Source: Paracamarosporium sp. OC-R06-R3 (taxonomy: Eukaryota; Ascomycota; Dothideomycetes; Pleosporales; Didymosphaeriaceae). Taken from it: DNA of 64,000 nucleotides. Shown in pieces: positions 498 to 3,717 of the stretch. The notes below the pieces were generated by a model. It had not been told where the DNA came from. It did no database searches and saw only the letters and a program-made list of their open reading frames with translations. The stretch spans positions 302,658 to 366,657 of the forward strand of contig JACVRA010000101.1 of NCBI GenBank assembly GCA_019828545.1, written 5' to 3'. The position numbers and the translations under genes were made by a program. Every line of letters starts with the position of its first letter. Position 1 is the stretch's first letter.

Positions 498-1448
498 CTA
501 CAAATTTGGCATCGCGTTATCTGAGGCCCACTGTTTGATCTTGTCGAAGTTTCTGCAGACGTGCTTCGATTCGTAGTCAGGCGATGGCTCTTGCTTGCCA
601 GGCGTGGTGCGGTAGGTAAAGACGCTAACATCTGAAGCACACATCAACTTGGTGCGTAGAATCTCGATGCAATGATCTGAGACGAGGTTAGTTAAGTCTG
701 CATAAGAAGACTAAATCTAGCATGCTTACCCAAATACGCTCTGACTTCTTCAGGTTTGCTGCTCTCGTCCGACTGTAGCTTTGTGTAGTGTTCCGGGTAA
801 GTCGACATCCTCAGAAGGTTGAGGCACTGCAGCTGGTGAAAGACTTCCAGACCAACCCGATATCCAGTCTCGCCTGTTTTAGGGTCGGAAACTTTAAGGG
901 AATCCATAGGCTTGTTGAGCTTGGAGAAATCCTCCATAGCAACCATCTGGTCCGGAACTGATGCAATATTAGTTATGCACTAGGTACAGGCTTCAATATT
1001 CACATACCGTATGCGATATCTAGCCACGCATTGTTGACCTCCTGAGATACTCCCACGTACTTGGATGAGTTGACAGGACTGGGCAACCTGAAATCGACTT
1101 CCTTGTATTCCACGACGTTCATAGCTGGCGCTGTAGTCGGTTAGTTCAAGGTGATTGACAACAAATATCAATCCACCTACAAAAGACGCCGAATTCATCC
1201 ATCAATCTCGCTGCGGAATAGGTGGATTGCGATTTTTGGGAATAAACCGCGCAAACCAGAGTTAAAGCGGACATAGTGAAGACGAAGAGGTTCGCCAACA
1301 GAAGATAGGTCATCCCTTTCCTCCTTGCGGTTTCCTTGATGTGGTCCTTGTTGAGGAACGATGTTGTCTCGCCATCTTGAGAACTGAAGTCGTCGTATTC
1401 AACTTCGTTCTGTGCTTGCTTCTCCATCCTGGTGCTGTTAGGCTGCAT
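498..1448 (-). CDS. UstYa-like (DUF3328) oxidase, RiPP-type
   Basis: Four exons, 1448-1181, 1130-1008, 957-730 and 676-498, give 265 residues, the usual length for the family. Seen: a cytosolic N-terminus of about 45 residues, one membrane helix at 46-68, then the post-helix block FSPAMNVVEYKEVDFR (family members have YSPA..AVEYE). The two short metal-binding-type motifs are HQLQC at 171-175 and DHC at 207-209, the latter followed by IEILR. Known: UstYa/UstYb-type proteins perform oxidative cyclisation in fungal RiPP pathways (ustiloxin, phomopsin, asperipin, victorin) and normally carry two HxxHC motifs. The first motif here has Gln for His, and the second lies directly after an exon junction. 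The gene is divergent from a kexin-repeat precursor 1.15 kb away, which strongly suggests a shared pathway (inference). The third intron splits the Asp codon of DHC. A role on a non-RiPP substrate is the main alternative. Confidence 0.88.
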
Positions 1449-2594
1449 GGTGCGATTTGAAAGATTATTAGAGTATTAGGTGGAGTAGAAACGAATTTTG
1501 CTAGATTCGGCCAGCGAAATGCGAAGGAAACAAGAAGAATGCGTTCAACGCTGGAGATTGAAAATGCAGGATGAGGAAGTCAGGCAGAAAGGTCGGAGCA
1601 TAGAAAAGACCCGGAGTTGAAGACGTAAACCTCAGACGGTAACGCGGGGCACGTAACCTAGATGTGAACGCGGCATAGCTCCGACTGGTGTAGATCGCCA
1701 TTGAGCTGCGTCAAGGTGAGCCTCGTGAGGCAAGTTGACCCAGGCTAAGCTTTGCAAGGAAGGCCGACCCGTAAACAAGCATTTTCGCGTTAGTGCCACC
1801 GGAAGCGCGAACGGATGTGGTTGGTTGGTGAAGTGAACGGGTTTGAAGATGCACGCTAAACGATGTCTTGCGTCTCATCGTTCCGCACCACTGTTTGATC
1901 TTGGCAATCGTGCACACGGGGCTCTAACGTCGATTCTGACACTCGATAAGCGGCAAGACTTCTCCACAACAGCGTCTCTTCCGCCCATTTGCTACAGCGG
2001 CATTTTGCGCGCGCTGCTTTGACGAATGAACGGAGGGCACCGAGGACAAGCTTTGTTTCAGTATGTGAGTACTATGTACCGGGATTGAAGACTAAAGATG
2101 AGAAGTATTGGCAGCATATGGTTAGAGCGACGATTTAATAAAAGTTCTTTTGGGTCTTATTACCGAATAACGTGCCGATTGTACCGCCTGGTGACGAGGA
2201 GTGAACGTGCCCGGCCAATGATACATCCTACCAACGGACACCGGAAACATGATGCCCACACTCTCCAGCTCTGAGGCGCGGTCTGTCTCCCGGACCAGAC
2301 GTGACAGCCTTGTCTTGCACGGAACCCGAACCGGAAGTAGATGCTGTCCTGGATGCGCGTTCGAATGCTGGTCTCAATGCACTCACGTCTCAGGAGCCCA
2401 GACCATGACAAGTGCTCAGCCTGACGGGAGGGATAGCTAGAATATAAACCCTTCTCTCAGCCGATCAGGCCATCTCGGTAGGCGTTGATCGTACTCAAAT
2501 CAGCTCATTCACTCTCATCCCCTCATTTGCTTCATTCGGCTGGACCATCTTCTTTCTTTAGACAATCCTTTTTACACGCTTTACTTCATTCATC
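1449..2594. promoter_or_regulatory. divergent promoter region, UstYa-like / precursor
   Basis: This 1.15 kb stretch separates two divergently transcribed genes and holds no convincing gene; the short reading frames have no family similarity. A TATA-like ATATAAA lies at 2442-2448, about 150 bases before the precursor start. A pyrimidine-rich leader follows at about 2500-2590. Co-regulation of the two genes from this region is plausible but inferred. Confidence 0.5.
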
Positions 2595-3717
2595 ATGAGA
2601 TTCGCTGCCATTGCCCTCCTTCTAGGAGCCACTAGTGCCTATGTTGTCACCAACGATAATGCTAGGAGCGACGCTGCTGTGGCTGCCCGCAACGTTGTGA
2701 GCGGAAGTGTTTCTGATATTGCTATTGACGCAAGGGATCCCCACCACAAGGTATGAAGCAAAGATACTGCTCATCCAACCCCTACTCATCGCAAACAGGG
2801 TCGAAAGAATAACCGCCGCGAAGTAGAGGAGGTCGAGGTTGAGGCACGGGACCCGCACCACAAGGTATGGAGTAAAGAATCATGCTTAATTAGTTCATAC
2901 TCATGGCAAACAGGGCCGCAAAAACAATCGTCGTGAGGTAGAAGAGATCGAGGTCGAGGCACGGGACCCACACCACAAGGTATGGAGCAAAGACTCATGC
3001 TCAATCAATTCAAACTCATATCAAACAGGGCCGAAAGAACAACCGTCGCGAAGTAGAGGAGGTTGAGGTTGAGGCACGGGACCCGCATCACAAGGTATGG
3101 AGCAAAATCAATCCTCAATTAACTCATACTCATACCGTACAGGGACGCAAGGGTAACAACAAGCGTGAGCCCCACCGTAAGTTACCTATAGTGTTTACAA
3201 AGTAGCACATTTGCTAATAATCGTAGACAAGGGGAGAAAGAACAACAAGCGCACGCCAGAGCCTGAGGCAGAGGTTGAGGCTCGTGAGCCCCACCGTTAG
3301 TTACCTTTAGCCTCCATGGAGTAGAACGTTTGCTGAAAGTCTATAGACAAAGGGCGAAAGAACAACAAGCGAGAGCCGGAGCCTGAGGTAGATGTTGAGG
3401 CTCGTGAGCCGCACCGTGAGTTACTTGTGATCTCTATAGACTAGAACATTGGCTGACAGTCTATAGACAAAGGAAGGAAGAACAACAAGCGCACTCCCGA
3501 GGTTGAGGTTGAGGCTCGTGAACCCCACCGTGAGTTACCTATAGACTTTGTGGAGTAGAACATTCGCTAAAGGTTTTATAGACAAAGGACGGAAGAACAA
3601 CAAGCGCACGCCTGAGGTTGAGGTTGAGGCTCGTGAGCCCCATCGTAAGTCACTTCGGTATCCATTGAACAGAACATCGGCTGACATATTGCAGACAAGG
3701 GGCGCAAAGGAAACTAA
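2595..3717 (+). CDS. kexin-processed repeat precursor peptide (candidate RiPP precursor)
   Basis: Ten exons: 2595-2750, 2799-2864, 2914-2979, 3029-3094, 3143-3176, 3227-3295, 3347-3415, 3467-3529, 3582-3644, 3695-3717. All have GT-AG introns of 48-52 bases, and together they encode 224 residues. Seen: a signal peptide (MRFAAIALLLGATSA, 1-15), a short leader, then repeats of the form EVEVEAR[D/E]PHHKGRKNN ending in RR (three times) or KR (five times), with a C-terminal GRKGN. Each repeat has an acidic spacer (E/V, later T/E-P-E) and a basic His/Lys/Arg/Asn block; the basic block is the invariant part. Known: Kex2 cuts after KR/RR in the Golgi, and dikaritin precursors have a signal peptide plus kexin-separated core copies, with UstYa enzymes acting on the cores. 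Inferred: the conserved block is the product or core. No Tyr, Phe, Trp or Cys occurs in any repeat, unlike known dikaritin cores. An unmodified cationic secreted peptide with acidic pro-spacers is therefore a serious alternative. Confidence 0.85.
2799..3699 (+). repeat. tandem exon-intron cassettes in the precursor gene
   Basis: Direct repeats of about 113-120 bases, each one exon plus the following intron. There are two subfamilies. Type A (exons 2-4; introns starting GTATGG and ending CAAACAG or similar) has 66-base exons with phase 0 at both ends. Type B (exons 6-9; introns starting GTRAGT or GTTAGT, with a shared GTAGAAC...GCTGA..GT core) has 63-69-base exons with phase 1 at both ends. 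The 34-base exon 5 is phase 0 on entry and phase 1 on exit, and joins the two. Introns are conserved along with exons, so whole cassettes were duplicated. Confidence 0.85.

What the first reader, a model, noticed from the sequence alone, without database searches (positions are those of the whole stretch)
498..3717. Candidate fungal RiPP locus: UstYa-like oxidase divergent from a kexin-repeat precursor
Seen: a 265-residue DUF3328/UstYa-like protein and, 1.15 kb away on the other strand, a signal-peptide protein with eight KR/RR sites separating near-identical units. Known: this pairing defines dikaritin-type pathways (ustiloxin, phomopsin, victorin). Inferred: the two genes make a new peptide family. 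Other enzymes may lie left of the window.
Basis: partly seen in the sequence, partly recalled or inferred. Interest (0 to 1): 0.9.

Follow-up and report, generated by a model that had tools for sequence, protein, structure and literature searches.

The report
Fungal peptide-repeat gene with altered oxidase
A fungal gene that strings together nine copies of a small histidine-containing peptide sits next to the gene for its likely partner, a protein of a copper-oxidase family that here has lost two of the four histidines such enzymes use to hold copper, so the pair is of a known kind but its modifying step looks changed or lost.

Summary
A 265-aa UstYa/DUF3328 protein (minus strand, 4 exons, 498-1448) lies 1.15 kb from, and divergent to, a 224-aa apparently secreted precursor (plus strand, 10 exons, 2595-3717). 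The precursor has nine PHH units and eight KR/RR sites. Repeat copies differ mostly at silent sites.

"New dikaritin" is not supported. The repeats hold no Tyr, Trp, Phe or Cys. No tyrosinase or second UstYa was found on the 501-kb contig. Proline plus di-histidine repeat precursors with a nearby DUF3328 gene are in print as type G-8 (45 of 49; PMC7329392); assignment to G-8 is inferred.

What looks new: the partner has HQLQC/YLDHC instead of the copper motif HxxHC...HxxHC. Orthologs of four Didymosphaeriaceae species share the change; 33 other Pleosporales rows keep all four histidines; related lineages lose two, three or all four. Alanine mutants at these positions killed CctR (PMC12435403). 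So the partner is probably a retained pseudoenzyme or has an altered site. Each repeat is also split by an intron in its core.

The parts
498..1448 (-). UstYa/DUF3328-like gene, 265 aa; exons 1448-1181, 1130-1008, 957-730, 676-498
   Evidence: spliced model; PF11807 E 5e-53; 81-88% identical orthologs in Didymosphaeriaceae
824..838 (-). motif 1 of the UstYa-like protein, HQLQC (residues 171-175); second His of HxxHC replaced by Gln (residue 174)
   Evidence: (printed DNA)
669..736 (-). motif 2, YLDHC (residues 205-209), split by the 53-nt intron at 729-677; first His of HxxHC replaced by Tyr (residue 205), coded in exon 3
   Evidence: (printed DNA)
2595..3717 (+). Kex2-processed repeat protein (KEP) precursor, 224 aa, ten exons: 2595-2750, 2799-2864, 2914-2979, 3029-3094, 3143-3176, 3227-3295, 3347-3415, 3467-3529, 3582-3644, 3695-3717 (end includes stop)
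2595..2750 (+). exon 1: signal-peptide-like N-terminus and first half-unit ending ...DARDPHHK
2799..3094 (+). repeat block 1: exons 2-4 of 66 nt each (GRKNNRREVEE[VI]EVEARDPHHK), separated by related introns; introns in phase 0, after HHK
3143..3176 (+). exon 5, 34 nt, junction between the two blocks (phase 0 to phase 1)
3227..3644 (+). repeat block 2: exons 6-9 of 69, 69, 63 and 63 nt; introns in phase 1, inside the second His codon of PHH
3695..3717 (+). exon 10: last half-unit (H)KGRKGN and stop codon

Best explanation
The locus is a two-gene peptide module of the known di-histidine KEP kind. The precursor enters the secretory pathway (inferred from its N-terminus). Kex2 cuts after KR/RR, and possibly also at the conserved single Arg before each XPHH, so that about nine short basic peptides of the type [DE]PHHKGRKNN are secreted (inferred). 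The divergent partner is a membrane-anchored UstYa-family protein facing the Golgi/endosome lumen (inferred from CctR). In most of the Pleosporales seen here its ortholog keeps the four histidines of the binuclear copper site and would oxidise the PHH peptide (inferred). In the Didymosphaeriaceae it has lost one histidine from each motif (shown), which should abolish the canonical binuclear copper reaction (inferred from CctR mutants). It has been kept as an otherwise conserved protein, most likely as a pseudoenzyme that still binds, chaperones or routes the precursor, so that the peptides leave the cell linear or less modified. Wide conservation and housekeeping neighbours suggest a developmental or signalling peptide rather than a toxin cluster (weak inference).
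For: Precursor anatomy and silent-site bias. Eight PHH-repeat relatives, six of them from named fungi. Across nine precursors (window included), 40 of 44 PHH units have Arg two before the Pro and 41 of 44 have Gly two after HH; the rows include mis-spliced database models. Type G-8: HH plus P, 49 KEPs in 18 genera, 45 with DUF3328 within 15 genes (PMC7329392). Of 66 positions invariant in 33 canonical Pleosporales rows, five are changed in all five Didymosphaeriaceae rows used, and two of those five are copper-ligand histidines (174, 205); 31 of the 66 differ or are missing in at least one of the 12 degenerate rows. In all 12 His174 is gone and motif 2 lacks at least one His. On the tree the state of residue 174 needs at least three changes, with two independent pairs on well-supported branches. 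CctR: point mutants of the HxxHC His and Cys to Ala completely lost activity; two Cu per monomer (PMC12435403, passages). Both motifs lie on predicted helices 168-182 and 199-220 of the P0009 model.
Against: No fungal DNA context other than this genome was reachable, so neither the synteny of this ortholog with G-8 genes nor dN/dS could be tested. G-8 membership rests on HH plus P and genus overlap: three of my named precursor genera (Sporothrix, Colletotrichum, Pseudogymnoascus) are on its list, three are not (Mytilinidion; Cytospora, listed under G-7; Pestalotiopsis, listed under G-9); the motif figure and Table S2 were not seen. The same Q/Y pair recurs in a remote homolog (P0100, 34% identical), which fits a selected altered site better than decay. 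The degenerate clades have longer stem branches (0.18, 0.17 and 0.19), so relaxed constraint cannot be excluded. The sign test for coupled loss has too few pairs to be significant.
Confidence: 0.5

Rival explanations
1. Altered but active enzyme. Losing His174 and His205 removes one cross-helix histidine pair and leaves His171 and His208, so the protein works with one copper, or completes its site with ligands from the PHH substrate.
For: In an antiparallel hairpin of helices 168-182 and 199-220, residues 171/208 and 174/205 lie opposite each other (my geometric inference, no coordinates seen). All five Didymosphaeriaceae rows used lose exactly 174 and 205. A remote homolog, P0100, has the same HQLQC/YLDHC while its tree neighbour P0103 is canonical.
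Against: Massarina and Byssothecium in the sister clade keep only His171, and Periconia none of the four, which looks like stepwise loss. Lophiotrema, Amniculicola and Polyplosphaeria lose 174 and 208, not an opposite pair. CctR point mutants are reported dead (PMC12435403).
Confidence: 0.22
2. One reading: a dikaritin-type RiPP pathway in which the UstYa-like oxidase cross-links the repeat peptide through an aromatic residue.
For: KEP next to a DUF3328 gene; DUF3328 is enriched next to KEPs (PMC7329392).
Against: No Tyr, Trp, Phe or Cys in residues 41-224 of the precursor; degenerate HxxHC motifs; none of 39 tyrosinase matches on this contig; no second UstYa match on the contig.
Confidence: 0.06
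3. The two genes are neighbours by chance and do not act together.
For: The genome holds about 54 UstYa loci (75 matches, grouped by me into the window gene and 53 stretches), and the matched neighbours are mostly housekeeping genes.
Against: About 54 loci in 43.1 Mb give roughly a 0.8% chance that a given gene has one within 3 kb (my arithmetic). 45 of 49 G-8 KEPs have DUF3328 nearby (PMC7329392). Seven of the ten genera on the G-8 list that I take for Pleosporales (recalled, except Periconia and Paraphaeosphaeria) appear by name among the UstYa hits.
Confidence: 0.12
4. The UstYa-like gene is simply decaying and has no function in this lineage.
For: Lost copper ligands; longer stem branches in the degenerate clades.
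Against: Intact frame and splice sites in the window gene, 81-88% identity to orthologs in four other genera, 61 of 66 canonical-invariant positions not uniformly changed in Didymosphaeriaceae, and Cys175, 209, 219 and 247 kept in all 12 degenerate rows.
Confidence: 0.1

Closest known systems
KEP type G-8 (#15) of Umemura 2020 (PMC7329392)
   Same: Precursor with dibasic-separated repeats holding proline and di-histidine and not counted among the Tyr types, DUF3328 gene nearby; the type lists Paraphaeosphaeria, Periconia, Sporothrix, Colletotrichum and Pseudogymnoascus
   Different: The passages and sections I read mention neither lost copper ligands in the partner nor an intron in each repeat ('exon' 0 and 'intron' 0 occurrences in the paper); the motif figure could not be seen
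Dikaritins (ustiloxin, phomopsin, asperipin-2a, victorin)
   Same: KEP precursor plus UstYa-family gene
   Different: No aromatic residue in the repeats, no tyrosinase found, degenerate double motif
CctR / ApnU / AprY copper-dependent DUF3328 enzymes (PMC12435403)
   Same: Same family; predicted long N-terminal helix and two motif helices, conserved Cys
   Different: Two of the four copper-ligand His are missing here
Epichloe GigA precursor (named in PMC7329392; further details not seen)
   Same: Repeat precursor of the ustiloxin type in a filamentous ascomycete
   Different: Another precursor; its core and gene structure were not compared here

Membership tests
Kex2-processed repeat protein (KEP) | secretory signal | tested here: inconclusive
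   Hydrophobic N-terminus MRFAAIALLLGATSA by eye; no signal predictor available
Kex2-processed repeat protein (KEP) | near-identical repeats separated by dibasic sites | tested here: met
   3 RR and 5 KR sites, nine PHH units
KEP type G-8 | repeat with di-histidine plus proline, without Tyr | tested here: met
   against the text of PMC7329392
KEP type G-8 | BLASTP membership in type #15 | not testable with these tools
   Table S2 and Fig. 5 not available; genus overlap only
KEP type G-8 | DUF3328 gene within 15 genes (45 of 49 members) | tested here: met
   adjacent divergent gene
Dikaritin | DUF3328 class enzyme | tested here: met
   PF11807 E 5e-53
Dikaritin | two HxxHC motifs in that enzyme | tested here: not met
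   HQLQC and YLDHC
Dikaritin | Tyr in the core for ether cyclisation (ustiloxin, phomopsin, asperipin-2a) | tested here: not met
   0 Y, W, F in residues 41-224
Dikaritin | accessory tyrosinase or methyltransferase nearby (not in all clusters) | tested here: inconclusive
   None of 39 tyrosinase matches on contig C3; no methyltransferase in the 22 left-flank ORFs scanned of 63 listed; the rest was not scanned
UstYa/DUF3328 binuclear copper enzymes | four His ligands | tested here: not met
   His171 and His208 kept, 174 and 205 replaced
UstYa/DUF3328 binuclear copper enzymes | copper binding and O2-dependent activity | not testable with these tools
   needs protein

The most novel reading that the evidence does not exclude
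In this family the UstYa-like protein has given up one of its two copper positions, and the peptide's own Pro-His-His supplies the missing histidines when it docks, so that the active site is completed by the substrate. The exact Gln/Tyr pair recurring in a remote relative would then be a selected state and not decay.
Probability: 0.07. Interest if true: 0.8.

Novelty: new variant of a known kind. Interest (0 to 1): 0.5.

Why it matters
[quoted passage not shown] Here is an ortholog group, in the setting of a KEP gene, in which the motif erodes (four histidines in Lentithecium, two in Didymosphaeriaceae, one in Massarina and Byssothecium, none in Periconia) while the protein is kept. That gives a natural series for asking whether UstYa proteins have a second, non-catalytic job in peptide secretion, or can work with half a copper site. 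It also warns that motif filters would miss such partners, and that genes with one intron per repeat are easily mis-annotated (P0001 and P0004 seem to be).

Tried and rejected
Third homolog search, restricted to the repeat core: only P0001 among 7 candidates; no named Pleosporales precursor with the UstYa ortholog's species was found, so co-evolution of peptide and enzyme could not be followed. UstYa in viral contigs: 89 pattern matches, none a relative. Solved structures by sequence (best E 0.52) and by fold (none at E <= 0.001): no solved relative found, so no comparison of the site. Sign test for coupled loss: too few independent pairs. Introns in each repeat: paper searches listed no description of it, and 'intron' has no occurrence in PMC6339444 or PMC12048977 and one, on cDNA cloning, in PMC9769878. 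These searches are weak: one search was swamped by unrelated 'giga' words, one search returned one ant paper, and most subscription papers are not held. Lost copper ligands in DUF3328 proteins: listings and passages showed no report of them. P0013's motif 2 (NSDHC) was set aside as a likely gene-model error; P0062, P0067 and P0090 read through introns or are partial. In one search I used 5+3+4 degenerate and 33 canonical rows out of 101 aligned (window plus 100 hits); left out were partial, non-Pleosporales or unnamed distant rows, P0013, P0062, and P0025 (NQLHC). The tree used 59 of the 101 rows, that used 32; one of the six outgroup rows' sides was not clean. The metagenome collection was not scanned because its cap was 0.

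Full report
WHAT IS THERE. The window lies at C3:302658-366657 of a 43.1-Mb assembly in 337 contigs. The nearest UstYa relatives are Paraphaeosphaeria, Paraconiothyrium, Didymosphaeria and Bimuria (81-88% identity), Didymosphaeriaceae (by look-up for Paraphaeosphaeria; recalled for the others), so the organism is probably of that family. On the minus strand, four exons between 1448 and 498 give a 265-aa protein that matches Pfam UstYa over almost the whole profile (E 5e-53). On the plus strand, ten exons between 2595 and 3717 give a 224-aa precursor. The start codons are 1147 bp apart.

IS THE PRECURSOR REAL. The exon-intron unit is itself tandemly repeated: three units spaced 115 nt, then units spaced 114-120 nt. 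In block 1 (exons 2-4) 25 of 27 codon differences are silent and 26 of 28 substitutions are at third positions. In the two same-length pairs of block 2, 10 of 13 codon differences are silent and 9 of 14 substitutions are at third positions. Introns are less alike than exons (0.76 against 0.86; 0.69 against 0.83), while GT..AG ends are kept in all nine. Introns of the two blocks are no more alike than shuffled ones (0.49 against 0.48), and they sit five bases apart: in block 1 after HHK (phase 0), in block 2 inside the second His codon (phase 1). So the peptide appears to be under selection and the splicing model is sound, though no RNA was seen. The repeat part finds only this locus in the genome (7 matches).

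THE PEPTIDE FAMILY. Eight database proteins match the precursor (where only the 7990 candidates sharing most words were scored). With the window they share a signal-like N-terminus (by eye) and mostly R-[EDAS]-P-H-H-x-G-[KR] units: 40 of 44 PHH units have Arg two before Pro, 41 of 44 have Gly two after HH. Six come from named fungi (Mytilinidion, Sporothrix, Cytospora, Colletotrichum, Pestalotiopsis, Pseudogymnoascus); P0001 and P0005 have no name. Three of these proteins appear to contain read-through of introns at the PHH core (P0001, P0004, P0005; my reading, not tested on DNA), which suggests that the intron inside each core is old. The window precursor holds no Tyr, Trp, Phe or Cys after residue 40; the relatives hold a few (0-2 Tyr, 0-4 Phe, 0-10 Cys), partly in read-through or C-terminal stretches.

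ALREADY IN PRINT. Umemura 2020 (PMC7329392; passages, section 6 part 1, section 9) counts 7878 KEPs, 22% with a DUF3328 gene within 15 genes. It names two di-histidine types: G-3, and G-8 with 49 KEPs in 18 genera including Paraphaeosphaeria, of which 45 have DUF3328 nearby. The window pair fits G-8 by its text description and genus list; formal membership could not be tested, and three of my six named precursor genera are not on that list. So a KEP beside UstYa with a PHH core is not new. The UstYa ortholog is widespread: 100 hits, the named ones mostly Pleosporales by my knowledge of the genera.

WHAT LOOKS NEW: THE PARTNER. DUF3328 proteins are described as binuclear copper enzymes whose ligands lie in HxxHC(x)nHxxHC; in CctR these His and Cys mutated to Ala abolish activity, and two Cu bind per monomer (PMC12435403, passages). 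The window protein has HQLQC and YLDHC. In the alignment of the window and the 100 hits, 83 of 101 rows have both motif-1 histidines; the second is replaced in 16, the first alone in one (P0025), and one partial row (P0090) does not cover the motif. Among 33 canonical Pleosporales rows 66 positions are invariant; five are changed in all five Didymosphaeriaceae rows used, two of them being His174 and His205. All 12 degenerate rows lack His174 and at least one motif-2 His, and all keep Cys175, 209, 219 and 247. Byssothecium and Massarina keep only His171; Periconia keeps none; Lophiotrema, Amniculicola and Polyplosphaeria lose 174 and 208; Pleomassaria loses 174, 205 and 208. On a tree built without these columns the Didymosphaeriaceae/Massarina/Byssothecium/Periconia group is one clade (100/99), with canonical Lentithecium as its sister; the other four degenerate rows fall elsewhere, in a weaker group (86/93) with canonical Lophiostoma. 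At least three changes of residue 174 are needed, with two independent pairs on well-supported branches; the counts do not show direction, which I infer from the canonical outgroups. In 53 other UstYa-bearing stretches of the same genome, 52 show an HxxHC motif, in my reading motif 1 in each; one (L066) shows none and was not resolved. Motif 2 is often split by an intron and was not counted. The remote P0100 has the same HQLQC/YLDHC pair, and its tree neighbour P0103 is canonical (both are long branches, so their joining is unsure).

STRUCTURE. Models of P0009 (degenerate, mean pLDDT 78.6) and P0019 (canonical, 82.2) have a similar layout: a long N-terminal helix, then both motifs on two helices joined by a loop. 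No coordinates were available; that 171 faces 208 and 174 faces 205 is geometric inference. No solved relative was found.

NEIGHBOURHOOD. Left: a small Cys-containing, probably secreted protein, SKN1/KRE6, thiamin pyrophosphokinase, a Zn-cluster protein. Right: ADP-ribosylglycohydrolase, cyclase-associated protein (CAP), a PfkB kinase, an MRPL44-like protein. No second UstYa and none of 39 tyrosinase matches lie on contig C3. Of 63 left-flank ORFs listed, 22 were scanned, some in part. As far as examined this is a two-gene module, not a large cluster.

MECHANISM. Shown: the two gene structures, the silent-site bias of the repeats, the lost ligands, their sharing by relatives. Inferred: secretion, Kex2 cleavage, luminal location, partnership, loss of canonical oxidation. 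I favour a pseudoenzyme partner (0.5) over an altered active site (0.22), chance neighbours (0.12), decay (0.1) and a true dikaritin (0.06).

Noticed in passing
window 2595-3717: Each repeat is split by its own short intron; exons 2-4 (66 nt), 6-7 (69 nt) and 8-9 (63 nt) are multiples of three with matching phases, so exon skipping would change the number of peptides without a frameshift.
   Followed up: partly
L013:8991-9450 (about 0.2-0.7 kb left of the window): Small Cys-containing, probably secreted protein (MRFALVLFASVVAASPFPW...) with an NHHNQH stretch, between SKN1/KRE6 and the UstYa-like gene; its first exon's ORF has no Pfam match.
   Followed up: no
window 29520-37807: Minus-strand ORFs that look by eye like ankyrin repeats (29520-30419), a protein kinase and an NB-ARC/TPR-like stretch (33506-37807), perhaps fungal NLR-like genes (not searched).
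   Followed up: no
P0100: A metagenome UstYa protein only 34% identical to the window's has the same HQLQC/YLDHC substitutions.
   Followed up: partly
G000:C175:47515-48784, C163:3159-7354, C23:92428-94698: Other UstYa genes stand in pairs or clusters in this genome; a tyrosinase match at C23:96040-96666 lies close to the C23 pair, a possible dikaritin-type cluster.
   Followed up: no
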